The notes below the pieces were generated by a model, which saw nothing but the letters and a program-made list of their open reading frames with translations, was not told the origin of the DNA and did not search any database. Below, piece after piece: positions 1,136 to 48,782 of a stretch of DNA of 64,000 nucleotides (its first letter is position 1; the number at the start of each line of letters is the position of its first letter). The stretch lies in contig OU744731.1 in NCBI GenBank assembly GCA_916613615.1, positions 17,578,328 to 17,642,327 on the forward strand, in the 5' to 3' direction. The translations under genes were made by a program, and so were the position numbers. The DNA is from Steromphala cineraria (lineage: Eukaryota; Mollusca; Gastropoda; Trochida; Trochidae).

Positions 1136-4100
1136 GTCAGTGACTCTTTGGTATTGTAATAAAACACTTTCTTATGGACAGCCATCTCAACATCTCTTAA
1201 TTCTTTCTTTCATGAAGTCAAATTTTTGTACCCAAGTTAGATTTTAAATGAAATGAGGTTGTTGATGCAGGTGGTCCGAGCATCCAAAAAGAGAGTGACG
1301 ATTACACAAAAAAACACAAGAACCTGCGAGCTGGGGACGCTGTCATGACGGGGGCTGGTCGATTGCCATGTAAAAAGGTTATACATGCGGTGGGTCCTTA
1401 TTGGACTGGAGGAAAACAGAAGGAGGAGAGGGATCTTAAGGAAGCCATAAGAGAAAGCCTGGAGAGGGCCGAGGAGGGAAAGTTCACATCCATTGTCTTT
1501 CCTGCTCTCAGCACTGGCATCTTCAGATACCCTGTTGACCTTGCTACAAGGTACAGATATTATCTTCCTCACTTCCATGTGTCCACTGTTATTTAATTTG
1601 TATTATGCAAAAATAATTTAGGACGAAGCTTGCAGTTTATCATTATAAAGCATTAACAATAACGGAACCATAGACAAAATGTTTATTTTTACTTTCGCGT
1701 AGATTCACACCAGTAAGGAAATGATGTAAAGACATCATGACACATTTTGAAACCTTCCGTTAGATGACATTGATACTATTTCAAAGTCACAGCAGAGCAT
1801 GGGTATTTTCGGGAATGTCAAGGTTACAAAAAAATTGGGGACCATTAACTTAATTTTCCGAAAAAATATCAGGAAATGTTCAGAGGATTTCTATTTAAAA
1901 AAAACTTATTTTGAAGGTCACAATATGTTTCAATGTTAAGCAAATCCACCTAATGTTATCAAAGAAAATGACTTGATTATGTTGCTAAACTTAAAAATTA
2001 GCTATGCCCTTTACTTCCATGTTTTTTTAAGTTTTAAGCGATATGCTTTTACAGGGAATTATAGCTCCTTTTGTATAATATAGATAAATACACAAATATT
2101 ATAGTTTCCCAATCTTTTAGGTTCTCTTTATCAGATAATTTAATAAGGCATTGCCATTTAATCTTTACTCATTTATTTCCAGACATATCGTTCAAGCAAT
2201 CAATTCGTACTTCCGCGATGTAAAAGGAAGCACACTGAGAGTTGTCTACCTTGTTGACGTAGGAGAAAGAGCTGTGGAGGAGTTTGTAACAGCACTGAAA
2301 GACGTGTACTACGACCAAACCGTCATCACCCCAAGCACTTCAGTTTCAACTACGAACACTTCAGTTTCAACTACGGGACGTGCTAATCGTAAGATCTTAA
2401 TACTTTGTTATGATCATTGTTATGTTGGTGTTGTTCCTCACTTATCAAGTGCATGCCGAGCACGCCGAGCACAGAAAATAACAAGAAAAGCCTTTTAAAA
2501 GGCGAGCTTTGGGGCACCCGGTTATGTATCACTAATTATCTTCAGTCCAATAGAACCAGGGGATTTAGGTTAGGGAGGACTGGGACGGGGACTTTTACTT
2601 GAATAAATTGTTCCAATCGGAGACGCATGTTCATTGCTCTTTGTTTTGATAGTTATCAGTACACTATGTACATATAGTAAAACATCTCGTTCGTTCCGCT
2701 TAAATTTCAACAATGATAGATAACGTCTCCCATCTCAATTATGATATAAGTTTTTAAACATTAATACGGTAATTCAAATTTATGTTGCTTTAAAAGATAG
2801 CTGATGGTGAGTTTGATACAAGAGCCTGTGATTACCTAGAAGATAAATAGTTGCGCTAGTAAACTTTTGGGGATCCATTGCTTTCCAATAGGCCTACCCG
2901 CAAATTAATTTTAAACCCGTCGAATTTCCCATGCATGTTTCAAGAATAATTTTACTTAATCGAGTGTTGATCAAATTACAGCCGAAAGTTGCTGATAAAT
3001 TTAGAAATGATCTCAGCAACAAGTTCATAATTTTAATTATGTTATAGGATGACATATAAAGAATATATTATCATACTTTAGGCTCTATGTCGATACTTTC
3101 TTTGAAAGACACCTTTAATCGTAAATAAATCATCTAAACCGTTATGTTTTGAAACATGAAATTTGAAAATGGCCTGTTTAGTACAATTTGTTCCGTGAAA
3201 CGATGAGATGCATTGAGTGAACAATCAGTCATTGACAAGGCGGGACAGCGCTCGCGTTATAGTGAAAAAAATTGAAGGAACCGAATTCCTAGTTGATACA
3301 AAAATGGAATGTCGTTTCCGAATGTGGAATGCAAAAAATACACCGAATAACTACAAAACAACTCACATGCATATGCAAAATTGATATTTATCAAGGGTGT
3401 AAACGCTCATCCATATATTTTTGAAAATTTACGATATATTTTACATCACAACATTATTATAATAATCAGTTTCCAAATTAAAGCTTGCCAATTATTTCGT
3501 ACCACCCACATGGTCACGTGGGTATAAATTTGCTAAAGCTCTGTCAATTGGTCGTCGAAATACCAGGATATGCTTAAAACAAATATCATTGGCTGACACT
3601 TCTCTTTGAAGTTTCCAAGAGTAATATAGAGAGAAACTTCTGCCATTAGTTTTCAATATCAAATGTTACATAACTTTGGGGTCTCTGGACCCCAAAGCAA
3701 TAAGTATGATTTGGTTATTTTACTGTTAACGATGTTGATTGATAGTTTAGCTCAATAAGGAAGGTCATTTTTATGGATTATCAACTTCTTTATTCTGTAA
3801 TTGACATCAACATTAGACTTTCAATAAGAAAGAAGTTGATTATCCATAATAATAATCTTCCTTATTGATCTTCATGCCAACTTCTAGAATGCCATTCAAG
3901 TTATTATAGCTCTTTAACAACGAATAAAAAAATCTTATATTTATCAGATCATTACAAGATAGATTATATCTTTTTTGAGTTTTGTTTATCTTTCATGAAA
4001 ATATCTTTTCGTTTTCAGTTGCATTAACATTTTTTTATTTATCTATGCAGGTCAATTTACTGAACCGACAAGAGGTGACACGAATGAAGGATCTATAGAA

Positions 4101-7100
4101 GTTGTGTTAGTCCAAGGACAAATTGCAAATCAATCTGTAAGTATCTAATTGTTGATCAAGTTAATAGATTTTCAAATTATTTATTAAGGTCGGAGCTGCT
4201 ATTATTTTTTGTGCAGCAGCCGCACATGTTCTATTGGCCAAAACCTCATATTTAAGTGTTCTTGTAACGTGCACAAATCAAGGCACTTAGCAAATTCTCT
4301 AGGCGCTACTAACGTTAACTGGGCACAACTGGGATGTACTTCATACTACTTTTTGTTCGAGGGAATTATTTTGAAATTAAAGATAAAGGACAAATGTAAC
4401 AAGTTACAATACCCTAAAAACTCCAAAAAATATAACTTGCAAAGCTCTCATGTGGTACATATGGCAAAGTTTATTAGCAGCCCCGTCTAAGGACGGGGCT
4501 GCTATCAGTTTTTGTGAAGTTTCCATCGCCGCCGCCGCACTCGTACTACTAGCTATAACTTTTTTTCACTAAGCTTTCCAGAACTCTAATTCATACCTTA
4601 CTACTCATACCTGGGGGGAACGATTTTGACACGTTCACTTTCAAGGTCAAAGGTCAAGGTCACGAGATACTTATTCACTCTAAGAATTCCTTGTAAACGC
4701 GATAACTTGAAAAGTTTTTGTGTTAGGAAGCTCTAACTTGGTATATATCATCCTTGGAAAAGTAAAAAATTTTGAAAAGGTTTTGGCTACAATCCGTCAA
4801 AGGTCAAGGTCACAGCAAGGTCATGACGTAAGCATGTTTTAGCGAAAATGCTTTATTTTAACTATGAACACTTTTAATCAATACATGATTGTTATACTCA
4901 ATAAAAAGTGTTCAATGATTGTGTGACCTTGAAGGTCAAAGGTCAAGGTCATGAGATATGAGTTATTACAAAATGCACTAAATTTGGGTATAACTTTATC
5001 CCATTTAGCTTTTCATAACTCATGAACATGTCTAAATGTTAATACTTCCAGGGAATCATTATGACATGTTCACTTTCAAGTTCAAAGGTCAAGGTCACGA
5101 GTTATAAAATCACCGCAAAATTCTTTGTAAACATGGTAACTTGAAAAGTTTTTGTGCTATGAAGCTCTAACTTGGTATATATCATCCTTGGAAAAGTAAA
5201 AAAATTTGAAAAGGTTTCGGCTACAATCCTTCAAAGGTCAAGATCACAGCAAGGTCATGACTTAAGCATGGTTTAGCGAAAATGCTTAATTTTAACTATG
5301 ATCACTTTTAATCAATACATGATTGTTATACTCAATAAAAAGTGTTCAATTATTGTGTGACCTTGAAGGTCAAAGGTCAAGGTCATGAGATATGAGTTAT
5401 TGCAATTCCTTGTAAACACAATAACTTTAAAAGTTTTTGTGCTATGAAGTTTAGATTTTGTATATATTATCTCTTGAGAAGTACAAAATTTTCAAAAAGT
5501 TTTGGGTACGAACTGTCGAAGGTCAAGGTCACAGCAAGGTCAACATATATGGAGAAAATGGATTAATTTAATTTTTAACACTTTATTTCATTGCAATAAT
5601 GTTATACTCAATGAAATGTGTTCATTGATTATGTGACCTTGAGTGTCAAAGGTCAAGGTCACGAGAAAATTCCCAATTTGGTGAGGCCTGTAAAAGGCGG
5701 AACAGGGTAAGGCGAAACCCCAAGTTCAGGGGCTGCTCTGCTTTTGCGGTATCCCGCAAACGCTAGTCTAGTTTAATTTGAATTTGTAAATTTAAAAAGG
5801 TTTGGCTACAAATTTATTATCCATGGTTGGCATTCCCCTTTCCTAAGAAACACTATCATTAATTGTTTGGCCTTGAAGGTCACTATATAAGTGGTTTTGA
5901 CATGTTCACATTGAAGGTCAAACAAGGTCACGACTTCTGAAATGTATGTTATGGTATATTTCTGACAATGTGATTTTATGTGACAATGGAGAATACAAAA
6001 CGGGATAAAGCGAAACATTTAATTTTGGGGTTGCTCTGATTTTGCATTGTGACCATGAAGAAGGCATTACAGGGGAATGCGAAACCCTCATGTTTTGGTG
6101 TTGCTCTGCTTTTGCGGTGTCCAACACATCCTAATCTTCTTCCTACATAACATGTTATGATTCCAATCAGGTGGTCGCATCGGTGTCCAACACATCCTAA
6201 TCTTCTTCCTACATAACATGTTATGATTCCAATCAGGTGGACGTCATCGGTGTCCAACACATCCTAATCTTCTTCCTACATAACATGTTATGATTCCAAT
6301 CAGGTGGACGTCATCGTCAACTCGACATCCAACAACTTGGACCTCACTCATGGAACTGTTTCTAAGACTATTTTAAAAGTTGGAGGGACAACACTACAAA
6401 AAGAACTGAGAAAGAATTACCCACGTGGCATAAAATCTGGAGACATTGCAATCACTTCAGGTGGAAACCTGAACTGTAAAGCTGTCTACCATACGTGTCT
6501 CAGCAACTGGGGCGATGGCCAGGAAGAGGTCTGTGTTTGTGTGTTCTGTGATAATATGTTTAGCTTTAATCGGTGTCAGAATACCGTGTATGATTTTATA
6601 TCTTTAAAATATCTCACAATGGTATCACAAATGCTAAATATTACCTTCTTGTCACGCAAATCGAACAAAACCCTAAGATGAACACAGGAACAGTATTTGT
6701 TACCAATAAATAAAAAAAATTGGATCGTAAAACTTATGATACTTTACGTCAACGTTCAGAAGTTTTCTGTTAAATTTCATATTTCCTGTGACCAGGTGTT
6801 GCATCATGTTATCCAATGATATCTCCTAAATAAAACAACGGCAACTTAGTGATTTTTCACAGTATATGGTTGGGGCTAAAAACATATTAATTCGCTGATA
6901 CCGGGGCAACATTCTCGAATTTTTTTAAAAATGTAAAAGGATTACCCCGACAACTCTTTTGAAATTTCTTGATTTTCCAAAGAAAACTAAAAAATCCCAT
7001 AGTTAGGCTACCTCTCTAGATGCTCCATTATATAATTTTTTGATGTATGTACACTGTCTTCAACCAAGTTTACTCAACTTGATTACGTTATGTTATTATA

Positions 7101-10100
7101 TGCAAAGCAGTGAGAGACTGAGATTTCTCAGTTATAGAAAAGTGTTCTCGCCACTGAGTGTGATATCACTTTTTCAGGTCAGTGAAAATATCACAGCGGG
7201 GATGACGTCATGTGTCAACGCGACGTCATCGCCATCGCTAAGTTACGATCAACAATGGTATGACGTCGCTATTAAACTTTTGAATCAAGACCTTTGGACA
7301 TAAATTACCACATTTTCGACCAGAGAGGCATGTAATAAACAGAATATCTTTTGTTTTGATTGTGATATCACTTATCTCTCATCTCGTGATTTGGTAAAGC
7401 CTATATTTGCACTCATGGCTGCGCAGCTCGTGAAAATACTGGCTCTACCCCGTCAGTCGATGAGAGATAAGTGATATCACACTCTAAACAAAAGATATCC
7501 TCTATGACATCAATGTCTAAATTTCTCTTCCTTCATGCAGGTGTTGCAGCAGCTGGTTTCAGACTGCCTCGAGACGGCCTCCAACTCTGGGTACTTATCG
7601 ATAGCGTTCCCAGCTCTTGGTACTGGAGTGTTAGGCTTCCCCCGGGACATCGTGGCCAGAACCTTGTATTCAATGGTAGACAAGTTTAACAGCAGGAACA
7701 TGTCACTCATTGAGGTCCGCTTTGTCGTATATCACGGTGATAAACCAACTGTTAAGGTAATTTTCCATTCCTTGTGTCATGACTTTATATCTCTAATTTA
7801 TAGTTTGTTTGTATTAAGATATTGTCCAAACGAAACGCTACATAACACATCACAAGTTAAATCAATTTACTGATGATTGGTACAACAGAAAAGGGTAACA
7901 TAATGTCTCCAGGAGCCAATTTACGTTGATGTTGAATTTTGAAACTTTAACCTTTAGTATTTGCGTAAAAAAGGTCTTTGAATCGCGTCTATTTGAAAAC
8001 TAAGCGAAATCAGGGATAGGTCGTATTGGAATAGGTGTTGGGTCAACATTTGTCACGTGATTTGCCTCTGTTGGGAGAGAATGATCGTCGCAAAAACGTT
8101 TTTTATGGATATTCTTGTTACAGAATCGGAAGTGTGCTTTATGATTTTCGATTCTTGGACAAATTTGTGTAAACCCCTCGGCTTCGCTGTGGTAATGCAA
8201 TAAACCAGTTGTTTCTTATTAGTCATATGACACAGTACCCCAAGGTCACAATGTAATAGGTCATATCATTCCAACTGCTTAAAGCTTTGGGGTTTATACA
8301 GGCTTTCCAGGAAGAAGATGACTTCATGAAGTCTGGAGGAAGTACAAGAGCAGTGACATACAAGCCTACAGTAGCTCCTAAACCTAAACGAAGATCAATA
8401 TTCCTTGAAGCATCTCGGGACGGTAAGGTGTTGCATGTTATTACAACGACCATAATAATCTTACTTTTCTGCAAAGTAAAGAATGGTATACATGTATTAC
8501 TTAGGGACAAGGGAAACAAGCGCCATTCTATAATCAAGCATGATACATATAACTATCCACTGGTGTTACACAAATGATCAAAGCTAAAATCAAAGATTCA
8601 AGCCTACAGGTTCAACATACTTTAAGAGCTGAGACAATTGTGAAGGTTATTTGGTCTATCAATAAAATAATTTTTATTAATCTGTAATTATTTACTCATT
8701 CTTATATACCGTTACGGGTTGATTAGGATGGATTCAATTTACATTAAAATGAAACAATAGTTCAAAATTAAGTATTTAGATACGTCTGAGGATAATATTA
8801 TTATTTTGATAAGATATGCTGTTAGCTATGTTCTTACAGTATTAATAAATGAGACTTTTTTATTTCCATACAAAAGGAGAACATGGGTATGATGGAAGGG
8901 GAAAATTGTTCACAGTTGACGTGAAAGAGGGCGAAATAAACAAGGAAAAGGTAAGGTCAAAGAAGTTGACGTCTCAATCTTTATCAATGGTAAGATTTTA
9001 GCGAGAACTATCGATTATTGCTGAAAGGTGTTTTTGTCCCAATACATTTTTTTGGGAATGATATGTTGTTACCAGTTGTCAATGACTAATTCATTAAGCT
9101 GTAAGTAGTTTCCTGCTTAGTCTATGACTATGATATTGCATATACACATTTGATATTCAAACCTATAATTTCTTTTTAAAACAAATCTTCATTAAAGAAG
9201 AACTCATGGCTGCAAGCTAGCTCCACTCACAGGAATGTGGAACAAAGGATTGGTTAAGTCAAAGTATGAAAAACGTCCCCTTGGAAACACCGGGCAGCCA
9301 GGCAATGGTTCTTCCTCTACCAGTCGCATAGCTTAGGCGTGATCATAACAAAATTTCAATCGAGAGTTGTATGGTACTGATAGGGATGATATCAATTAAA
9401 TGATCGCACGTGTAAGGATAGTCTAACCATTCGACTCTCGAAATTTGAAAGCAAATGATAAATACAATGAAAAGGAGACTGACATTTCTTCATTTTCATT
9501 TTCCTAAAATTCATCTCTCTAGTCGGATCATACATTTGCTAAGGTTTTTATTTTATTTAAGGGTCTTGTTGAGTCCATACAGATTAGTGAAAGGATATAA
9601 CCAACTTATAAAGGTTGGAACACATTGCGTTTAGAGATGGCATCAGAATCACGGATCCTTCTTCTGAACTTGAATTAGTGATCACTTAGGGGACTGTCGT
9701 ACTCATTGTGTGTTTTAAATGTGCCATATGTTTTTGTCGTCAGGATAGTGTACTGAACCTATTTAACAGGATTTCTTCTTAGTAATTATAATAAATACAT
9801 TTCAATCATAACATGAACGACATAAATACATAGCATGTAAGAGTTCTTGTGTGCACTGACGCACAACAGTCCAGAAAAAAACACTGATACCTTTTCTGTC
9901 TTCCTTACAGGCTGATGTGCTTGTCAACTCAACTTCTGCCCAACTCAACCTGTCCAACGGGGGCGTGTCCAAAGCCTTGCTTGCGACAGGCGGGACTGGC
10001 CTGCAGGATGAGCTCAACAAGAAATACCCTCATGGGATCAAGCCCTTTGAGTTGGCAGTCACTTCCGGTGGCAAATTGCTGTGCACAGAGGTCTACCACA

Positions 10101-13100: not shown

Positions 13101-16100
13101 TTGTGAAAGGAGCCTTCGGCGACCTTGAACTTGTGAACTTCCGGAAAAGCTCCGGCTTCTTGACAAAGAACGATGTCTTGAACTTTTATTTTAGTATTTC
13201 CCCCGAAACAAGATTTTGTTGTTGTTGTCAGTTTGGTATTATGTTAATTAATTGCGCCCACTTGCTACGTTCCAGGAACTTGGAAGGAAATATATGTATA
13301 ATATGTCTTTTAAGAATGTATGTTTTGAAGGTATCGATGTCAGATACTTTTACGTGTGTATGTTTATGTATGTGTTTAAATGCAATATAGAAGTGTTCAC
13401 CTTTTTCCATTTTTCACCTGTAGAAGCGTCTACCTATTCCCAATTTTCACCTGTTATTCTCCCATCAGTATTCCATATGTTTTTCACAACACCGCCTTGC
13501 CCAATTTTAGATAACAGTCGGTGCTTTGCAGTTATCCTCCACCTTATGGTAATTTATTAGCCATGGATGACAAATTTAGCTGTTGCTCCCAAAATTGCAG
13601 AGGCTTAGGAGATACCAAAAAAAGGAAGGATGTCTTCAATTTCTTAAGAGCTAAAAAAACATTCAATCTACATGCTCCAGGATACCCATTTTGATACCAA
13701 ATTAGAGTCGTATATTCAAGCGGAATGGGGTTTTGATAGTATCTTCAATTGTAACAACAGTCAATCTCGGGGTGTAGCTATCCTAATCAACAACAATTTC
13801 TCCTATAAAATTCACAAAATAATTAAGCATGAAAAGGGGAATGTTTTGATTTTAGATATCACAATATGTGATAAAAGATTAACATTGGTAAATCTTTATG
13901 GGCCTAATGTAGACTGCCCAAATTTTTATATTTCAATTCTTCAGCTAGCATTATCCTTTAATAATGAACACTTTATATTTGGTGGAGACTGGAATCTTGT
14001 TTTAAACCCAGACACTGATGTTTATAATTATATCAATGTTAATAATCCAAATGCTCGAGAGCAAGTGTTTAAGTTGATTGGTGAGCTTAACCTTATTGAT
14101 GTATGGAGGGATCACAATCCTGATTCTATGAAATTTACTTGGCGTAGAAAAAACCCTCTCAAACAAGCTCGTCTAGATTTCTTTCTGGTCTCTGAATCTT
14201 TGTTCCCTTATGTTCAGTCAACGGGTATCAGTGCAGGTTACAGGACAGACCATTCGCTTATAGATGTTCATTTTAGTCTTGGTGATAAGGGTAAAAAGTC
14301 ATCCTATTGGAAATTTAACTCTTCTCATCTGAAGGACATGGATTATGTTATGACTATTAAAGAAGTGATCTCAAACGTGAAGAAGCAGTATGCAGCCCTG
14401 GTTTACAATTTTGATAATATAAATACAATTCCTGACAGGGACCTCCAACTTAGAATTAGTGATCAACTCTTTTTTGAAACTCTGTTAATGGAAATAAGAG
14501 GAAAGTCTATCTCATATTCCTCATATATTAAAAAGAAAACCTCAAAAAAAGAACATGACTTGATAAAAGAAATTGATATTTTGGAAAAATCTATCTCCAA
14601 CCCTCATGATTTAGAACTTCTTGATGCCAAAAAAAGTGAATTGGAAAGTTTAAGAAAAAGGAAAATGGAAGGAATATTTGTAAGATCAAGGGCTAAATGG
14701 ATTGATGAGGGGGAGAAAGTCACAAATTACTTTTGTAATCTAGAAAATCGAAATTTTGTCAGCAAGACAATGAATGAAATTGAAAGGCCTGATGGATCTG
14801 TTATTCATGATTCTGATGATATTCTTGAGGAAGCAAGGTCCTTCTATAGAAATCTCTATTCATGTAACAAGGATCTTGAGTCAAATGTAGACATCTGTGA
14901 TGTTTTGTGTGAGGATTTACCTGTCTTGGATAAAGTTGATTCAGACTCTTTGGAAGGGTACATTACTCATGAGGAATTACTAAAAGCACTTAAAGGTATG
15001 AAAAACAACAAGAGTCCTGGAACAGATGGTTTTTCTGCAGAATTCTTTAAAAGGTTTTGGATTGACTTGGGCTATTTTGTTTTGAGATCTATCAATAGTT
15101 CTCTGGATGTTGGTGAATTATCTATTACACAAAAACTAGGGGTTATTACTTGTATTCCTAAAGGAGACAAACCAAAGCGTTTTCTCACCAATTGGAGGCC
15201 CATTTCCTTGCTTAATGTAGTCTATAAAATGGCTTCTTCCTGTATTGCTGAAAGGCTTAAAAAAGTCCTTCCCATTCTTATTAATAATGACCAAACTGGG
15301 TTTATGTCCAATAGATATATTGGTGATAATATAAGAATTGTATATGATACACTTGTGTTTACTGAATCTCAAAATATTCCAGGTATGCTGTTCAGAGTAG
15401 ATTTTGCTAAGGCTTTTGATTCTGTTTCTTGGACATTCATACAGAAAACATTATCTTTTTTTGGTTTTGGTCCTGTCATTAAAAGATGGATTGAAGTGTT
15501 TTACAAAGATATTAAGTCTTGTATTGTCATAAATGGCAAAATGTCCTCCCCTTTTGAAGTTCTTAAGGGATGTAGACAGGGTGATCCGTTGTCTCCTTAT
15601 ATTTTCTTGCTGTGTGTGGAGATACTGGCAGGCATGGTGCGTGAAAACAAGAATATCAAAGGCATTTGTGTTAATAATACAGAGTATTTAGTTTCACAAT
15701 ATGCAGATGATACTGATTTTCTTCTTGATGGGAGTAAGGAGTCTCTTGAAGCTGTTATTGAATCTCTGGATATCTTTGCTAGTATGTCTGGTTTAAAGAT
15801 TAATTATGATAAATCACAGGTGATATGGATTGGAAGTAAGAAAAACAGTACTATAAGATACCTATCTCAGTTAAGACTCCAATGGAACCCCTCAACATTC
15901 AAGGTGTTGGGTGTTACTTTTAGCACAAATATTTCAGATATTGTTCAGCTGAATTTTAGGTCTAAGCTTTTTGAACTTAAACAAATAATGAATAAATGGG
16001 TAAACAGAATTTTAACCCCAATTGGAAAGATTGCATTGATAAAATCGTTATTAATTTCTAAACTGAATTATCTCTTTTTAACTTTACCTAATCCTCCTGG

Positions 16101-19100
16101 AACTTTTCTCAAAGAACTTAACCAACTGTTGTTCAAGTTTGTTTGGAATAAAAAACCTGATAGAATAAAACGAGAAACGCTATGTAAACCAGTTAAAGAA
16201 GGTGGATTGGGTATGATCAATATATTTGAATATGTTAAAGCCTTGAAAGTGACATGGATCAGAAAGTTAGTAACTAAAGATCCCAAATGGAAATGTATTT
16301 TATGTGCCACTTATTCTAAATATATTGAATTTGACAAATATGGCAACGAGTTTTTGAAGATAATTGTTTGTAACCTTTTAAAACCATTTAAAACAACACA
16401 AGATACTAAATTAAGATGGTTTCAGTACAGGATACTCCATAGAATTTTAACTACAAATATATTTCTTACAAAAATTAGAATTAAAGACTCTGATCTATGT
16501 ACTTTCTGTAATGAAGAACAGGAATCCATTTGTCACTTGTTCTGGGATTGCGAATTCGTACAAGTATTTTGGTCAATATTTCTTTCTTGGTTAACTGAAA
16601 ACTGTGATCACATCCATAACCTTAAACTCTCTTTGGAATTGATAATCTTTGGCTGTAAAAAAAATGTTTTCACTGATGCTGTTTTTGATTTATTCATTTT
16701 ATTAGGTAAATACTACTTGTACAAATGCAAGCTGAACTCCTCACTACCAAGTTTTACTCATTTTAAAAATGAGTTGAGATTGAGATATTATATATAGAAA
16801 AATGCTGCAAAAAAGAATTTTATGCCAAGTGGGCTATGTACCATTGTTTATTCAAAGATGACTGAATCATTAATGTCTAACTTCTTGACATTGATCTAGT
16901 ATTGGTGTGAATGGTGTGTGAAAGTTTCTGTCTGTATTCTATTGTTTAAGAAAGGCTTCCTTGTAACCCAGACTGAATTTGATTTCATTTAAGTCGACTT
17001 GACAGTCCCCTGGCTGCTGAGTTTTTGATTGTTACAGGGTTTGAGGAATAAAAAAATAAAAAAAAAAAAAAAATAAATAAAAATTATTATTAGAAAGCGT
17101 ATATCCCGAACTTTCAATTGCTATGTATCGCCAATGTGTGATACCATGAATGAAATATGTTATATGGCAATATCATGTTTGTATAATATCCACGGCACAA
17201 TGTTTGTAACATCAATGTGATCCTAGCTTTGAGTTTAACTTAAGCATAACCTTGTGATGACATTGAAATATCATGCATATATAATCTATGTATTTGTATG
17301 TTTTACAGTTGAGAACACGGGGGACATGTCTATAGGACGTATAAGCGTGGTGGTAAAGTCAGGCAACCTGGTAAAGGAACCTGCAGATTGTATCATCAAC
17401 AGTACCAACATCAATCTGGACTTGAACAAGGGTATACACTCTGTCCTATGTGCTTCTTTGATAAGATGATGTCGTTCCATTGCATATTATTGATTGACAA
17501 GCTCACACGACATTGATTACCTTAATTACCTGTGTTAGGTATTCTATGTGTTCCTTTTATAAGATATTGTTCCTTAACTTATTAGTGATTGGCAACTCAC
17601 ACAACTGATTCAAATTATGTGTAAAACATTATATTTGATAACATGCTGTCGTTTTTCAGCTTATTAGTGATTGACAAGCTCACACAAGATTGATACAACT
17701 TACAAACGCCCGATATATGTGCTCTTTTGATACTTGATTAAAGTGCCTTAGCATATTTTGATTGACCTTGATTGATTCAACTAACAAAAGCCAGATTTGT
17801 TTGCTTCTTTGGAACATGATGTTGTTCCTTAGCATATTGATTGACCTTGCACAACATCTTTCAAATTACATACGCTAGATATTATTAGTGCTCCTTTTTA
17901 CTTGATAATAGCGTTCCTCAGCATATCATTGATTGACAACCTCATACAAAATTGTTCCAACTTAAATACAACAGATACATTGATGCAAATCTATGTCCAT
18001 ATGATGTTACAGATCTAAAATATGAATGACTTTAAGATTCAATATAATCTTTACAGGTGGAGTCTCAAGTGCCATAGCGAAGGAAGGTGGTAAATCTCTA
18101 ATGGATAAATGTGCACAAAAAGGTAATATCTTAATATAGGCTTAAATATTTTAATAGTATCTCAGACATATTGTATTCAATATTAATTGCTTTTGAAAAT
18201 TTAAGTAGAATATCTGATTTCAAAAATATTAAGTAATAGGATAATTATAACAAATAGAATTTACCATGAAACACAGATAGGACAGACATATTTCAAATCA
18301 GCTGAAAATTGCTTTAGGTGATAAATGAGGCGGTTAAAATAAAACTGATATTGTGGGACACTTTTACCTAAAGATAGGTTTCATACAAGACGAGTAATTC
18401 TTTTGCTTTACCCAAATAAAGAATTGGCAAGCTCTAATATTTCTTCTTTTCCAAAATGCTCAGTTTAAACTGTTGCATGCTTTTTTGCAACAGCCTCTTG
18501 CAACAGGTAAATCCTCAACAATTAAAGAAACTCCTCTTGACACAATCCTTCTTTTGCAAAAAAATTTGCATAAAGGAAAACTAATGTCCCTTCACATGTT
18601 TCACCGTTATTGGTATTGATACATTTTGCAGCTGATGAGATGAGACAGAAAGGGGTGATCAGTACAACAGCTATAGGTCTACAGTGCAAGTACGTCATCC
18701 ATGTAGCCTCTGAACACTTTGGAAACAACTGGAAGTCTGTAATCGCGGCCTGCTTGGATGAGGCAAGAGCTCTTGGAGACGTCAAGTCTGTAGCATTTCC
18801 TATCCTTGGGACAGGTGAGATTACACAGTTCATTGTATCAAAGCACGTTTCTTGGATGATTTATAAGACGAAATGCACATGTAATTTATTTAAAGGGGTC
18901 ATATCATTTCTTAACAAGAATCTCTGTTCTTGTTAAATTCAGTGTCCCTTAACTTATGATAATTGCATTGTGGCAATTTTTATGTTATTCTATGTTACAT
19001 TATTGTGCACTTTAATGACTTGATTTGTGTTGACCTACAAGATTTTATCCTTCTCTACTAATGATGCTATGCAAAGGGTTTGATGAGTAACCTGACAGTG

Positions 19101-22100
19101 TATAGCCATCAAGATTTTTCACAATGTTACATTCAACAAAGTATTGAACACATAACTCCACAGCGAATGGGCAACAATATTTTTTCCATAATGTTACAAA
19201 ATTATGCTGGTATACAAAGCATTGAAGACATGGATGACAAGATTTTTCACAATGTTACAATCATATGATAAGACATAACTCCACAGCTAAAAAATGACAC
19301 GATTTTTCACAATGTTACTACATAGTCCATCGAGTAGAATGTTAATTGCCACAACAGTACTCACACACTGGTAGTGTTATGTGTTAGTCTTCAAGAACTT
19401 CAGTCGCTAATGGCTGAAATATTGCCCAATCGGCGTTAAGCATTAACTCACTCTCTCACTCATTCAAGAATTTTTATTTGTACAGTTTAAGTAAGCCTAA
19501 CCTCAATAATACTCGCAATACTCTCATAATGAGTCTAACAAGATACAGTAAGAGGTCGCGCCAGCCGACCTTTCGGTGACCTATGACCCTCCAACGTTAT
19601 ATGTGCGAAAGCAGACTAATGCAGCATGGTAAGCCGAGCCCTAATTGGTCAATTTGATAGGTCGGCTAAGGCAAGCACTTACAACATGAAACAATCACAA
19701 TTATTGTTAGTAATTATAAGAAAACTTACCTCTAAACCAACATTGACTTATTTCTCTCTTTCAGAGAGATCGTACAGAGTGTGAGAATAAAAATTTTTTT
19801 AGTGGTATTCTTGTTGTTCTTCCCAATTATCTCCCCTTGAGTTACTTCCCTTGAAATTCAAACTCAGCTGTCATTCTTTTCGAAGACGGAAGCTGGATAA
19901 CGGGGAGGAGGGTGGGCGTAATTCGTTGGTTTAGAGGTAAGTTTTCTTATAATTACTAACAATAATTGTGATTGTTTCATAATTATTGCGAAAACGGTTA
20001 CCTCTAAACCAACATTGACAGAATACCACGTAAGGAGGAGGGTATCCAGTCCTTACAATTTAAAAACCCAGATAGAGAAATTCACTCTCTAGATAACGGA
20101 TTTTAATATTAAATTATGACCTCAGAGGAGATAATCGTAAGAATAACGTTAAAAATTTCGAAATTTTCGTCCCAATTTGATCCGAATAATGGTTAAACCG
20201 AACGAATTTTCTAGAGAGAACTTCATTATTTGGGAATCTTAACGAATTAATTACCCAAAAAGATCGTATTTTTGGCGGGAAAACACCAAAATATAAAGGA
20301 TGTACGTGAAAATCATGGAATTTTCCCGATATTTAGTGTATAATACGAATAAAACGTAATTCGAGATAAATTCGGGACGAAAATATAGAGACCGAGTTTG
20401 ATTCTAGAATGGTAATTTCTTCTCAAACAAACATTCTCTCCACTCCTTAATAATGTTAAGGTAGGGATGTGCTGGGGAGAATTAGTGCTGAACTCGAACT
20501 AGTAGTTAGAGAATCCCGTTGTGATTATACCACGTCACAATTCACCAACAACAAACGAAAGGTTAGGGATGAACATAATTTTACCCAGCCCTTAGTATTG
20601 TGCGGGAAGTACTATGGAAATATGCCCACCTAAACTTGTGGTTGTAGTCCACCATCTTGTTGATAGGTCGGGACTGGAATCCACTCACTCCCGGGACGTC
20701 CCCCCCCCCTTCTCCTGAAGGAGTGGGTCAGGCAGAGAGGTGCTGAGCCGCCACCAAAGGACCTAGTGACGACAGGCCCCCCAGCAGAGAGGCGATGTCT
20801 CGGAGATAGGCTCTGGTAAAGGCACTTGAAGATTTCCACTGACAGGAAGCTACTATCTGATCAATGGAAACTGACTTCCAGGCAGCTAAGGAAGTGGACA
20901 AGGCTCGAATTTCGTGAGGAGAGAACTTGGCATCTACCGTTTCTTGGTCAGCTGTGGAGTAGGCCAAAGTAATAGTCTTACGGAGCCACGAAGCAATGGT
21001 ATTCTTGGTGATTTCCGAGGATAAGGCGGGTATACATGGTAAGAAAAGTCGCCTTCTACCTTGTCTGATAGGGTGTGTTCTGACCAGATACCAACGAAGC
21101 GCTCTTACTGGGCACAGAGATCGAGATTTGTCCGTAGAATCCTTAGGCGCAGGTAGGGCCGGGAACGAATATACTCTAGCTCCCAGGGGACCAGAAGCCG
21201 TGGACTGATTTTTGGCCAAGAATTCAGGGAGGGCTCTGAACGAAACCGACGTATACTTGTGGGCAAAATCGATTGAGGAGACGTCAATGGCGTGTAGTTC
21301 CGAAACTCTGGCGGCAGAAGCAAAAGCTATCAGAAACGCTGTCTTCCAAGCAAGGAACTTTAGTGAAGTGGTGCTCAACGGTTCATAAGGTGGCCGTTGT
21401 AGGGATTGAAGTACCAGAAGCAGATCCCATTTGGGGAAAATATTTGGTGATCTAATGTCCTGCAGTTTGAAGGATTTAATGAGTCTAGTGAGGGTTACTT
21501 CCGAGCCAACATTTAACCCTTCCAATTCCGCAACTGAGGCTATCGCAGATCTGTAGCCTTCGATCGTTCCCGCCTTCAACTTGCGCTCTAGCTGAAGGTG
21601 GTTCAGAAAGTCTGCTATGATGGGCATAGACAAGGGGTCTTTGGCTAATCCTCTGTCTGCTCTCCACTGTTGGAATCTAATCCACTTACTATCGTAGAGT
21701 GCGGAAGTGCTAGGTCTAATGGATCTTGCAATAGCATCCGAAGTTTCTTGTGCATATCCTCTTCCTCGGAGTGTTCTCTGGATATTTTCCAGACGTGAAG
21801 GTTGAAGGTCTGGAGGTTCACAATGTCCGGCTGCCAGGTTGGCTGCTGCAGTAGGTTCCACCACTGGGGAAGCTTCAAGGGGGGTTCCATGAGAAGGTTC
21901 AATAACGATGGGAACCAAGCCCTCGTGGGCCACGCCGGAGCTAGTAGATAGACTACGCACTTGTGTTGTCTCACCTTGTTGAGAACATCCGGAATCAACT
22001 TGAAAGGAGGAAAGGCATAAGCTATAAGTTTCTCCCAGGATATTGAGAGAGCATCGACCGCTAGGGCTTGTGGATCCGGTACTGGGCTGACGTAACACGG

Positions 22101-25100
22101 AAGTCTGTGGTTTAATGCCGTTGCAAACAGATCCACTTGAGGTCTTTCCCATTTTTCGGCGATCAGCTTCATCACTTGTGGATGAATCGTCCATTCTGAT
22201 GAGACAATGAGCTTCTTTCTGGATAATGAGTCCGCTAGGAAGTTCAACTTTCCTGGGATGTGCCTGGCCTGTATGGATATCGTCCAAGCGTCTGCTAAGG
22301 TGTACAGGTCCCTTGTGAGCTGCATCAGCGGGGCTGATCTGGTGCCCCCTAGTTTGTTGATGTACGCTACAACAGTGGAATTGTCTGTCGCAATCATAAC
22401 GCTTGAAGCTTGTAGTAGGGTCTTCCAGTTGGCAATGGCTAGGAGTACCGCCTTCATTTCCAACGAGTTGATGTGAAAACTGGCTTCTGCATGACTCCAG
22501 GTCCCGCTCAACATGTGCTGATTCCAGTGTGCTCCCCAGCCCGCGTTCGAAGCGTCTGTGTAGATCGTATGTTGGGGCGGCGGTAGTGTAAATGGGCAGC
22601 CTGTCATGACATGCGAACGTAAAGTCCACCATCGGAGCTCTCGGCAAACTACGCTTGTAGGAGTGACCTTGGAATCTAGAGGTAGATGGCGGCAGGTGTT
22701 GACCCATGTCTGGACATGGCGCAGATTCAGACGGCCGCGTGTGGTAAAGGCCTGGATTGACGTAAGCGACCCAAGTAGGGACATCCACACCCTGAGTGAA
22801 TGGAGCTTGCTGTTGTCCGTAAGCAGATGGATGGAAGCTTGGATGGAAACCCAACGGCTCTCTGACGGGGCGATGGTGGAAGAGGTCGAGTCCAATATGG
22901 CTCCCAAGAATTTGATCCGTGGCGACGGGATAAACTCTGATTTGTCTGGATGAACTATCCAACCCAGATGGGTGAACACGTGATTGACAAGTTGTAGATG
23001 CTTGAGCAAGATGTTGTTGTCCTGATGACGAAGCAGAAAATCGTCCAGGTAACTGTGAATGTATACGTGATGGAGATGAAGGAAGTGAAGCATCGGAACG
23101 GTGATCTTTGTGAACAGCCAAGGGGCGATAGAGATGCCGAAGGGAAGGACCTTGAACTGAAATCGACGGCCGTTGATCGCAAAACGAAGGAATTTCCGGG
23201 ATTTGAAATGGATGGGTACATGTAGGTAAGCGTCCTTTAAGTCTAGACTGGCAAACAGAGATAGAGGAAGGATCAGCTTGCGGATGTTGTTTAGCGATTC
23301 CATTGTGAATTTGGGAGGCCTGCTCAGAAAGGACTTGTTGAGGATTTTCAGGTCTATTATCATCCTCATTTCTGGCGTATCCTTCTTGGGCACTAGGAAA
23401 ACGGGTGAATAAAACCCTGGAGAAGCATCGGCGGGATCTAACTCCGAGATGGCGTCTTTTTCTAACAGTTGCTCGACGGCTAAGAGCGCCGCTTGGAGCT
23501 TTGGGCCTTGGAGGAAGAATCTTCTTCCCTGAGGGTGGACGGTCAAAGGCGGAGATTGATCCCACTGGAGCATGTATCTTGAGGCTATGATAGATAGAAT
23601 CCAGGTGTCGGTGGTTACTATCTTCCAATTCTGAAGGTATCGCCCCAGGCGACCCCCCACGGGCGAGGGGGAAGTCGGCTGGGTGAAGGGAGTCATCAAA
23701 TCCAAGTCGGGGGACGGAAGCGGTCGACAGGTTTGAGGGGAAGGAGACGGACGAACGTGGCAGTCATCGTTTAAATCCACCTCTCGCTCCACGAAAAGAC
23801 TTGCCTTGGAATTTCCCTGAAACTCTAGATTGATCCCTGGATTGAGGGGGGTGGAAATCCCTGCGGCTGCGGGGACCACCTCGGAACTGTGATCGAGGCG
23901 GAGGCAACTGATTGGCTAGCTTGCTCTGGTTACTTGGCCTTGGATTCGAATTGCCACGGCGCTGGCCTTGGAAGGATCCCTTTGATAATAAGGCTTGCGT
24001 AAGCTTAAGATTGAGAGACTTGGTTGACATAGCATCTTGCGACTCGCTGGCTTGGGTGCAAGATCCATTAAATAGAGTTGGAGCCTGGACAGGTTGTGTA
24101 AGCAGGGAGTCCTTGACATCCAACGGAAGGTCTCTAACTCTAGACAAGTGATGTTGCCTTTCCGCTAGTAAAACTCGGGCCATCGAATTTGAAGAAGCTG
24201 CTGCTAATTCTTGGGAGGCCACGAAAACAGAGTTCAGAAAACCATGGGCCATAGCCACATCATCAGCTCTCATGGTTTGGAGTGCATCAGGAGCAATGTT
24301 GTCATAAGATGTAAACTTGACTGGGAGCATTTCTCTAACACCAGCGCAGAACCAGTTGATGTAAGAAAGAATGTCCTGTGAAAGCCGTGCATTGCGATCG
24401 ATCTCCATCAAGTCCGTTCTGGAAATGTTAACTTGATTGGCAGTCGTGGTACGAGGGTTGAGCCTAGAGAAGTCCTTGTCCAAGGAAGGCAACTCCTGAG
24501 AAATAAATCTGTTATGGATCAAATAGGCAGCTCCTGGCCTGAACTTGGGAACAAAAAGCTGCCCGGTCTGATTGGAGAGTTTCTCATTGATATCATTACA
24601 AGATGACTTGACAACTGAAGAATGAGGCAAAGACAATTTAGACGGACGGGAGGGGGGTAGGGACCCCAAATCCCCTAACTCCTGAGGCCTAGGAGAGGCC
24701 GTATCATCCGAGTGTAGAGGAACAGTGCAGGGCTTCAAACGATGAAGATACTCCAATTTGTCAGAATAATTCCACTCCGGATCAAGCGGAGATGAATAAG
24801 AGTCCGGTAGGATCACAACTTGTCCTTCATGCGAGGCTACAGTAAAGTCCAAAGAGTCCGTGTCTGTGGCTGAGTTACTCAAAGCTCCCAGTCCGCTTGG
24901 GTCATGAAGCACGGGAATCAACGGTGGATTGTCAATGCTAATAAATTCAGCTTGGGAGCCACCAGCCGCACGAGCCGGCACGCGGGAACCCGCCTCACTC
25001 CCAGCCGCAGCCGTAAGTCCCGGGCCGTCCGTGCTAACGGTAGGCTTAACGGGATCGGTCTGCTTGCCATGGACTCCCTGTGAAGCCCGTGCGCTGTGGC

Positions 25101-28100
25101 ATTCGACAGTGTGCCAGAGGCAGTAGAGCTGGTTTGCCCGTGCCCGCCGTGGAGAACACTGGGCCCGTGACCCGTGTTTCCTTGGCTAGGCAGAGGAGCA
25201 GAGCCGACCGCCTCCTCCCTTGATACGTGGATCAGGGAGGCCGACCGCATACGGCTTGTTGAGTCAGAGGACGGGTCGCCCGTGCAGCCTACCGCCGCGG
25301 GGTCTCCCTTAGGGGTCTCTAGCGCTGAGAAGCGCTTATTAGTGTCTTTCTTCAAGGACGCCATGTTTGAAGATAGGGACATGAGCATTTGTTTGATCTC
25401 TTCTAATTCCGAAGGCTTAGAAGGAGTAATCTCAGGGGGAGACTGTTTGATCTTCTTGGCAGGGGTAGATTTAGGAGCGGCCTTACGCTTGGGTGTCTTG
25501 GGTTTAGTGCGATTGTTATGCATCAATTGCCATTCATCAAGAGATAGGTGGTGACACATGAGACAACAATCTTCATAAGTGCATGGTAACTTGTCACTAC
25601 ATCCATAACAAAGAGAATGAGGATCTCCTTTGCTCAGAAAGCGTTGACACTCAAGACACTTCTTTTGCAAGGCGGCCATTACGGGAAGACAAAGGAAAAC
25701 ACAAGGAAAACTCACTCAAGACTGGAGACACTGATTAGCACAGATAATCCACAGGAATCACACAGTAATCCAGGTGAAACACAATAATCCGTAGGAATAA
25801 CACAGTGATAATCCAGAAGAGTGAAAAACGTATCCAAAGCTTGAGTAAACTCAAGAAGAATTTCTCTCACACAAGTACGACCTAACCCTAGGCGTACAGA
25901 GAAAAGAATGACAGCTGAGTTTGAATTTCAAGGGAAGTAACTCAAGGGGAGATAATCGGGAAGAACAACAAGAATACCACTAAAAAAAAATGTATTCTCA
26001 CACTCTGTACGATCTCTCTGAAAGAGAGAAATAAGTCAATGTTGGTTTAGAGGTAACCGTTTTCGCAATAATTACCTAGCTAGACTCAGTATGGGAGTAT
26101 AGCCAGTATTATTGAGGCTAGATTTACTTTGACTGTTATTTGAATTATGTCAAACAAGGTGTTGGACACACAACCCCACAACATATGGCCGACACGATGG
26201 CTACGACGATCAGTGAGTTCGAGGGCCAGGCCAGTAATGTAGTGGAGGTGAGGGTTGTGGTCTTCCAGCAGAAGATGATGGATCCCTTCGAGAGACAGAT
26301 GAGAGCATCAATAGATACCATCGGCAAACCCGGCACCAAAGCATTCCTCAAAACATACCGGGATACAGGTACTACTGCAAGTTCATATTTTGGATATATT
26401 GATGGTATAAGTGGATTTTGAGTAATGGTACTTTTGTCTGACTTTTGGGATATCACAAATATTGAATAAAAAGAATGAAGGTTTTATGTCAAGGATCATT
26501 AATGTCTTACTTTGAGAGCATAAACCGGGCCTCAAAACAAACACAAGTACTTTCTACAGGATTTATATTGTTTCATACAAGTACTTTGGATATAAGGATG
26601 GTTGGAATGAGCTGATATTAAACCGTCTTTCTATATTTCAAACATTCAAGAAAATAAATGTTTCTGTTTGAAACATTATGTTATTGAATTTTCACATGGA
26701 CTTTTTACACATGAGCACATATTTATTAGATTGAAATCACAATATGGTTTATTTAATGAGTGATTGGTTTTTATAATAAATTCTAATAAGGAAAGCTTAT
26801 TAAAGTGGTGTGAATGACAACCGAAAAATAGTGACTACTCATATGGAACTGTGTTTAGATTGTCTTTGATAACTGTTACAGACGTTAAAAACATACATAC
26901 ACATATTGAGTAGAAATAACACATTTTGCAGCTATTGTATCCTTTAATTTTGCTTGAATGTGAATTCGTTGAATTTATAATTTTAGTACTGCTGGTACAT
27001 GGGCGGTTAATAAACCTATAATTACAAAACCTTTTGGTAAGCGGTTATTGGAGCAGGGTGCTTATTAAGTCTAATACGGTATTTTTCACTTATAAGGGCA
27101 TTCACTGAAGATGACATTAAAAAGATAATAATATTTTCTGAAGGTACACTGTCCCAAGGGTCGGTTGATCTGTTTGTGTTCTCCGATGACAAGAGCCATA
27201 TCAAGGATGGAATCAAAACACTAAAGATGAAATTTGATAAAGAGCTTTCTACGAAAAATGTCAAAGACGAGATGATTTGTAAACTCACAGACAATCAGGT
27301 AATCTATCAAGAAGCAGGTAATCATTCTCTGTCAGATTTGTTTAGAATGTCGAAACCCATCTTCCTATGCATAGCATAAAACGCCTGTTTCCGAACTGTC
27401 ATTTTATGCCTTGCTGCAGACCCTTTATTTTTCTGTGCTGCTATAGTGTCCCTACAGGCTAGAGAGCAAGCACAGAAACCTCAAGGGTCAGTAGCAAGGC
27501 ATAAAACTGACAGTTTGGAAACTGGCATTTTAGGCTTTGCGTAGGACGAAGGTCGAAACCGAAAACTAATGATTTTGGATTCAAGTGATGGAAGGACAGA
27601 CTGTCGCCTGACAGTTAGTAATGGGCTAAAATTATTGTGCTTTCTCTTATCCGGCATCAATTCAGTGGGGGTAATGAACTTGTGAATAATATCAATTTAT
27701 TATATATAATATAATCATTCTAACATGACAGGTATAAATATTTCACTATGATTTTTTATACAGATAAAGCAGTTGAAGAAGCAGTTTGATGTGGACCTGG
27801 TTGTAGATAGGAAGCAAGGTCAGATGAAGATCACAGGCTTTTCAGATCAGAGCAATGAAGCAAACATTGAAGTGATCAACTACCTGCGAGAAATTGAGAA
27901 GCAAGAGAAGGATTCTGAAAAAGCAACCTTGCTGTCCCGATCCGTACAATGGTGCTACATTGAGAAAGATGCAAAAGGGCAGGACACCGTACATAAGTTT
28001 GATCACATGCAAAACTCTACTATTGAAAAAGCTTTTGAACAAAAGAATAAAACCATCAAGGTTGACATTCCCAGTGGAACTCTTGAGATTGATCTCTTGA

Positions 28101-33765: not shown

Positions 33766-48782
<15,017 letters not shown>

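What the first reader, a model, noticed from the sequence alone, without database searches (positions are those of the whole stretch)
6115..6314. Triplicated 3' splice site at a coding exon
A 66-67-bp unit spanning the branch region, acceptor AG and first four codons of exon 5 is repeated three times. All three acceptors look equally strong, yet only the most downstream gives an open frame. From copy 1 the frame meets TAA after about ten codons, and from copy 2 TGA after about nineteen. Mis-choice would create decay-prone mRNA, so the locus could tune PARP14 output or be slightly deleterious.
Basis: partly seen in the sequence, partly recalled or inferred. Interest (0 to 1): 0.75.

Follow-up and report, generated by a model that had tools for sequence, protein, structure and literature searches.

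The report
Tripled splice acceptor in PARP14-like gene
In an animal genome, probably a mollusc's, a recent stutter in the DNA copied the junction between an intron and a coding exon of a PARP14-type gene three times, so the splicing machinery meets three equivalent landing sites of which only the last gives a working message; it looks like an ordinary young tandem repeat in an unusual place, and a neat natural test of splice-site choice.

Summary
Confirmed: window 6115-6314 holds three head-to-tail units (66, 67, 67 bp), each with a branch-site candidate, acceptor AG and the first codons of a macrodomain exon. The acceptors open at 6171, 6237 and 6304. Only 6304 keeps the frame; the others reach TAA at 6198 and TGA at 6291. 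A search of the 1.27-Gb assembly finds the array once. Sixty paralogous exons have AG at the same codon; 0 of 60 show a duplicated acceptor. The sites are equally weak rather than strong: 50 of 56 unique paralogous acceptors score higher. New here: the first 23 bases of each unit are the decayed 3' end of a dispersed Helitron-like repeat, only 77-87% like its relatives, whereas the units' intronic parts are identical, so the triplication is young. Tandem arrays are common in the DNA held (15 in 278 kb, this one included), and one paralog carries one at its donor side. Most likely a young tandem duplication happened to span a splice site and is tolerated because the native, last acceptor still works; leakage into decay-prone mRNA is unmeasured. 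Closest precedent: the potato RdRp duplication. Regulation, intron birth and assembly error are less likely, not excluded. No RNA or reads were available.

The parts
4051..4136 (+). Upstream coding exon ('exon 4'), ends TCT|GTAAGT in phase 0
   Evidence: reads ...SIEVVLVQGQIANQS, which joined to VDVIVNST and the next exon scores as a Pfam Macro domain
5685..5771 (+). First Helitron-like 3' end in the intron, better preserved, terminus CTAG followed by T (left limit is that of the stretch aligned)
   Evidence: alignment; terminus shown
6056..6137 (+). Second, decayed Helitron-like 3' end; hairpin and terminal CTAG lost; runs 23 bases into copy 1
   Evidence: 77-87% identity to 38 listed dispersed places; alignment with 19 of them
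6115..6180 (+). Unit 1, 66 bp; acceptor AG 6169-6170; exonic tail GTGGTCGCAT
6181..6247 (+). Unit 2, 67 bp; acceptor AG 6235-6236; exonic tail GTGGACGTCAT
6248..6314 (+). Unit 3, 67 bp; acceptor AG 6302-6303; tail continues into the open exon
6131..6135 (+). CTAAT branch-site candidate, A at 6134; copies with A at 6200 and 6267 (each -37)
   Evidence: only CTRAY match in the unit, but just 5 of 56 paralogs have one in the region, and looser TNAY matches lie at -21, -14 and -11; branch use not tested
6198..6200 (+). TAA reached after 9 codons if acceptor 1 is used; lies in the copy-2 branch motif
6291..6293 (+). TGA reached after 18 codons if acceptor 2 is used
6304..6528 (+). Macrodomain exon ('exon 5'), 75 codons, open; donor GAG|GTCTGT
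   Evidence: 67 further genomic matches
7541..7768 (+). Second half of the same macrodomain (next exon; 3' limit approximate)

Best explanation
A young minisatellite-type tandem triplication (duplication, then one more copy by slippage or unequal exchange) whose breakpoints happen to lie in a decayed Helitron-like 3' end on the left and 11 bases into the exon on the right. The native acceptor (copy 3) kept its full exon and supplies the functional mRNA; copies 1 and 2 are extra acceptors made of the same sequence. Shown: the three units, their identity, the frames, the Helitron-like part, and that 0 of 60 paralogous exons have it. Inferred: that copy 3 is used enough for the gene to work, since it alone is followed by the whole exon and is nearest the exon's own donor; that some transcripts go to 6171 or 6237 and, carrying early stops with many introns downstream, are mostly degraded; and that the array is neutral to mildly harmful and may vary in copy number between individuals.
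For: Units identical over 56-67 bp while the Helitron-like portion is only 77-87% like its relatives: two clocks, the triplication the younger unless copies were homogenised. Absent from 60 of 60 paralogous exons with an AG at that codon (46-base self-match within 400 nt upstream: 18-27 mismatches, 0 for the window). Similar arrays are frequent: 15 TRF arrays of period 30-150, at least 90% match and 1.9 copies in 278,005 bases held, 8 of them at 95% or more, this array counted in both (a biased, partly overlapping sample). One paralog has a 2 x 50 bp array at its donor side. Junctions share 2 bp (CG) with the parental flank. The gene keeps open macro, WWE and PARP pieces. With long flanking introns (2167 and 1012 nt), the upstream preference between competing 3' splice sites is reported as significantly reduced in human data (PMC9225289, passages).
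Against: No RNA evidence for any of the three junctions. The same paper reports an overall upstream preference for competing 3' splice sites, so copy 1 could be used heavily. Copy 1's two changes both fall in its 10-base exonic tail, which plain neutrality would rarely produce as independent events; one complex mutation would explain it but is not shown. No read data to exclude assembly error.
Confidence: 0.68

Rival explanations
1. Regulated unproductive splicing: the two upstream acceptors are a tuned poison switch that sets how much PARP14-like protein is made.
For: Both upstream acceptors lead to early stops; the intronic signals of the three sites are identical, so small shifts could move the ratio.
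Against: Not seen in 60 of 60 paralogous exons with an acceptor there; copies too alike to show long retention by selection; arrays of this sort are common in the DNA held.
Confidence: 0.08
2. Nascent intron or ratchet: each unit carries AG|GT, so the stretch from one GT to the next AG (66 or 67 nt) can itself be removed, giving back the native junction; the array is intron birth in progress or self-correcting splicing.
For: AG|GT at every acceptor; any GT-to-later-AG removal restores CAG|GTGGAC; by a plain count of consensus positions CAG|GTGGTC and CAG|GTGGAC match 6 of 9, no fewer than the gene's own donors of exon 4 (6 of 9) and exon 5 (6 of 9); tandem duplication across an intron-exon boundary made a new intron in potato (PMC4974935, section 5 read).
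Against: The array's donors match only at the exon side and GTG, none of the positions +4 to +6; once joined to exon 4's TCT they match 3 of 9; the potato case used a GTAAG donor instead.
Confidence: 0.1
3. Assembly or sequencing artefact; the animal has one or two units.
For: Copies 2 and 3 are identical and no reads can be seen here.
Against: A 200-bp array is short for any long read (sequencing method unknown here); copy 1 differs from the others at two places; the locus lies inside a 65-Mb contig and one match is found.
Confidence: 0.07
4. The gene is decaying and the array is one of its lesions.
For: Two retroelements and Helitron-like repeats lie among the exons, and the acceptor is weak.
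Against: Macro, WWE and PARP pieces are open and score above or near Pfam cut-offs.
Confidence: 0.05

Closest known systems
Potato RdRp gene (PGSC0003DMG402000361), intron gain by tandem duplication across an intron-exon boundary (PMC4974935; section 5 read)
   Different: There two copies, a GTAAG donor recruited from the upstream exon, and 106 RNA reads proving a new intron. Here three copies, no GTAAG-type donor, no RNA data.
Rogers model / ATP2A1-type intron gain by duplication of AGGT segments (as described in PMC4974935, passages; the ATP2A1 paper itself is not held)
   Same: The duplicated unit contains AG|GT and a branch-site candidate.
   Different: The parent AG|GT is an intron-exon junction, not exonic sequence.
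Human IFI6 (6-16) minisatellite giving multiple splice donors (Turri 1995, seen only as cited in PMC4526556)
   Same: Tandem repeat units each supply a copy of one splice site in an immune-type gene.
   Different: Donors rather than acceptors; repeats used to make several mRNA species.
Drosophila recursive-splicing ratchet points (PMC8605326, passages)
   Same: Acceptor and donor dinucleotides juxtaposed as AG|GT.
   Different: The donor regenerated on exon 4 here is poor (3 of 9).
Competing 3' splice sites and proximity rules (PMC9225289, passages)
   Same: Competing acceptors more than 20 nt apart with matching strength.
   Different: Those are human events in pairs; here three copies of one sequence occur in nature.

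Membership tests
Tandem duplication across an intron-exon boundary | Head-to-tail copies containing intron end, AG and exon start | tested here: met
Tandem duplication across an intron-exon boundary | Absent from relatives, so derived | tested here: met
   0 of 60 paralogous exons with AG at that codon have it; seven further matches could not be tested; other species not available
Intron gain by tandem duplication | Usable 5' splice site inside the duplicate | tested here: inconclusive
   CAG|GTGGTC and CAG|GTGGAC, 6 of 9 consensus positions, equal in count to the donors of exons 4 and 5, but no match at +4 to +6
Intron gain by tandem duplication | RNA reads across the new intron | not testable with these tools
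   no RNA data
Recursive splicing ratchet point | AG|GT juxtaposition | tested here: met
Recursive splicing ratchet point | Good donor regenerated after the first step | tested here: not met
   TCT|GTGGTC or TCT|GTGGAC, 3 of 9
Unproductive (poison) splicing switch | Alternative choice brings an early stop | tested here: met
   TAA 6198, TGA 6291
Unproductive (poison) splicing switch | Conservation of the alternative site | tested here: not met
   0 of 60 paralogous exons in the genome; orthologs in other species not available
Minisatellite | Tandem units of tens of bp, three or more copies | tested here: met
Minisatellite | Copy number varies between individuals | not testable with these tools
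   one assembly only
Helitron-like 3' end (repeat at 6056-6137) | Family ends with hairpin, then CTAG, then host T | tested here: met
   of 19 copies aligned, 17 end CTAG and 17 go on with T; the consensus folds with a 7-bp hairpin; the CTRR rule is recalled
Helitron-like 3' end (repeat at 6056-6137) | Window copy itself keeps hairpin and CTAG | tested here: not met
   AACACATCCTAATCTTC instead; decayed copy
PARP14-like ADP-ribosyltransferase | Several macrodomains, WWE, PARP catalytic domain | tested here: met
   PF01661 in the three macro pieces given, PF02825 and PF00644 in the fourth piece; PF22005 (Parp14 WWE) below its cut-off

The most novel reading that the evidence does not exclude
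The array is a self-correcting acceptor: because every copy ends in AG|GT, any use of an upstream copy can be followed, or preceded, by removal of the 66-67-nt stretch to a later AG, always giving back the native junction; a first stage of intron birth caught at three copies. A 14-nt palindrome in each unit lets any two copies pair and leaves one free (folding predicts 1-2 pairing before copy 3 is made and 2-3 after), which could bias the choice by order of transcription.
Probability: 0.06. Interest if true: 0.7.

Novelty: new member of a known kind. Interest (0 to 1): 0.35.

Why it matters
It is a natural experiment with three acceptors of one sequence in competition, differing in position and in what follows. 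Junction counts would show directly whether closeness to the upstream donor, closeness to the exon's own donor, or exon content decides, in an animal outside the usual models. It would also show how far a gene tolerates a fresh splice-site duplication, the step that intron-gain models by tandem duplication require.

Tried and rejected
Annotated protein that would show which acceptor an annotator used: not found. Searching residues 400-800 of the joined pieces gave 291 hits (7989 candidates scored, best 120 listed); the best is 38% identical (Saccostrea) and none of the 120 exceeds 42%. The first search with the exon alone returned nothing, probably because of the tool's length limits.

RNA folding as an explanation of site choice: the 14-nt palindrome CATAACATGTTATG pairs between copies, but the array folds only mildly better than shuffles (6 of 200 as good; 5 of 200 for copies 1-2), and the acceptor regions stay about equally open, 0.38-0.56. 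No direction follows, so it is kept only in the novel case.

Ratchet rescue: not taken as the main reading because the donor regenerated on exon 4 matches 3 of 9 positions.

Branch motif: only 5 of 56 paralogs have a CTRAY in -50..-12, so the motif is a weak guide to the real branch site.

Random genomic sample for the array background: not obtained; the figure comes from loci fetched for other reasons, some overlapping, so it is a rough rate.

Paper searches for a natural duplicated acceptor (listings) gave the potato case as the closest; the terms are narrow and most subscription papers are not held, so this is not proof of absence.

Full report
What is there. Window 6115-6314 contains three head-to-tail units of 66, 67 and 67 bp. 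Each runs from CGGTGTCC through a branch-site candidate CTAAT, a short pyrimidine stretch and CAATCAG to the first 10-11 bases of a coding exon. The 56 bases up to and including the AG are identical in all three. Copies 2 and 3 are identical over 67 bp. Copy 1 differs only in its exonic tail (GTGGTCGCAT for GTGGACGTCAT), probably the derived state, since nearly all paralogous exons have D as second codon. First exon bases are 6171, 6237 and 6304. The upstream exon, 4051-4136, ends TCT|GTAAGT in phase 0. From copy 1 the frame reads 9 codons to TAA at 6198-6200; from copy 2, 18 codons to TGA at 6291-6293; from copy 3 it is open for the 75 codons of the exon. The extra 133 and 67 nt both shift the frame by one.

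Which gene. The joined pieces are a PARP14-like ADP-ribosyltransferase: Pfam Macro in the three macro pieces given, WWE (PF02825 above its cut-off, the PARP14-specific PF22005 just below) and the PARP catalytic domain in the fourth. The ten best protein hits for residues 400-800 are molluscan, at 32-42% identity. The genome is held as G000, 1.27 Gb in 281 contigs, unnamed; the window lies in C38. The species was not identified; 'mollusc' is inferred from those hits.

How unusual within the family. The exon has 68 matches in the genome including itself (94 candidates scored). I looked at all 68 (30, 38). In 61, the window included, AG stands directly before the homologous first codon. The other seven are partial or degenerate matches (L053, L060, L084, L088, L089) or have no intron at this place (L086, L087), so the acceptor test means nothing for them. 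A 46-base self-comparison over 400 nt upstream finds the duplicate at 0 mismatches in the window and 18-27 of 46 in the 60 others. One match of the 200-bp array was found in the genome. So the conserved junction is single elsewhere and only this gene has it tripled, as far as these matches go.

How strong the sites are. A weight matrix from 56 unique paralogous acceptors places the window's acceptor below 50 of them (score 5.36, paralog median 9.20), and 5 of 101 AGs inside intron 4 score as high. Pyrimidine content, 0.59 against a median of 0.65, is not extreme: 20 of 56 are as low or lower.

Where the unit comes from. A 501-base search shows that window 6056-6137 belongs to a dispersed repeat, with 38 other places listed at 77-87% identity (40 of 69 candidates scored, so a lower bound). 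Aligning 19 of them with the window gives a common end, TTTTGCGGTGTCC(C)GCAAACGCTAATCTAG, after which the flanks diverge; 17 of 19 end CTAG and 17 of 19 continue with T. The consensus folds into a hairpin just before the end. Hairpin plus terminal CTAG before a T is the 3' signature of Helitrons (recalled); 150 Helitron-like replication domains were scored in the genome, many in long open frames. A better-preserved 3' end of the same kind ends at 5771. The second one, at 6056-6137, has lost hairpin and CTAG and runs into copy 1. So the first 23 bases of each unit, with the only CTRAY branch motif (A at -37), derive from the old transposon end. The stop met from acceptor 1 lies in copy 2's branch motif. 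Whether that motif is the branch site in use is not tested; only 5 of 56 paralogs have a CTRAY in the region, and the unit has looser candidates at -21, -14 and -11.

Age and origin. The same bases give two clocks: 77-87% against other members of the repeat family, 100% between units. No change in 56 bases on each of three branches puts the divergence below about 1.8% per site (95%), and 0 in 67 for copies 2 and 3 below about 4.4%, assuming no homogenisation. The junctions share CG with the parental flank, as in slippage or end-joining with little homology. In 278,005 bases held from this genome, TRF finds 15 arrays of period 30-150 with at least 90% match, 8 with at least 95%, this array included in both counts (88 sources, biased and partly overlapping). 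One of them, in paralog L024, lies at the donor side of the homologous exon in two 50-bp copies. Against that background an array over an acceptor is not surprising as a mutation.

How it probably works. The spliceosome meets three equivalent intronic signals. Copy 3 alone is followed by the full exon and is nearest the exon's donor at 6528; copy 1 is nearest the upstream donor. Published human data (PMC9225289, passages read) report an upstream preference between competing acceptors, strong with short flanking introns and significantly reduced with long ones. Here the introns are 2167 and 1012 nt. I infer that copy 3 supplies the working mRNA, with unknown leakage to copies 1 and 2 and decay of those products. 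Because all copies carry AG|GT, a splice from an upstream GT to a later AG could restore the junction. By a plain count the array's donors match 6 of 9 consensus positions, the same as the gene's own donors of exons 4 and 5, but with none of +4 to +6; once joined to exon 4 they match 3 of 9. That path is therefore open before exon 4 is joined and poor afterwards.

Place among known things. The closest precedent found is the potato RdRp gene, where a tandem duplication over an intron-exon boundary made a new intron (PMC4974935, section 5 read). A minisatellite giving multiple donors is known in human IFI6 (seen only as cited in PMC4526556). This is a further member of that kind, with acceptors, three copies and a transposon-derived branch motif. 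It is testable but most likely without an evolved function.

Noticed in passing
L024 (G000:C39:39661309-39661527, minus strand), array 1404-1504 of the locus: A paralogous macrodomain exon has a 2 x 50 bp tandem array (96% match) at its 3' edge; both copies hold a possible donor, AAG|GTGAAA and AAG|GTGAAG (true donor not tested). A donor-side counterpart of the finding.
   Followed up: partly
window 6146-6159, 6212-6225, 6279-6292: A 14-nt perfect palindrome CATAACATGTTATG sits between branch motif and AG in every unit; folding predicts that copies pair with each other. The window has 11 palindromes of that length, these three included.
   Followed up: partly
window 4554-6137: Much of intron 4 is repeat: 434- and 285-bp tandem blocks followed by two Helitron-like 3' ends.
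   Followed up: partly
window 13648-16797, + strand: LINE-type open frame of 1049 aa with endonuclease and reverse transcriptase domains, within the span of the PARP14-like exons.
   Followed up: partly
window 20728-25715, - strand: Overlapping frames, two of them scanned: reverse transcriptase, RNase H and a tyrosine-recombinase match below its cut-off. DIRS-like retroelement by its domain set (name recalled).
   Followed up: partly
G000 contig C38: 53 of the 68 matches of the macrodomain exon lie on this one contig, several close together: a large local PARP14-like expansion.
   Followed up: no
window 37296-37677: 177-bp tandem repeat, about 2.2 copies at 81% match; first copy has TTTTTCAG, second TTTTTTAG; no gene checked.
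   Followed up: no
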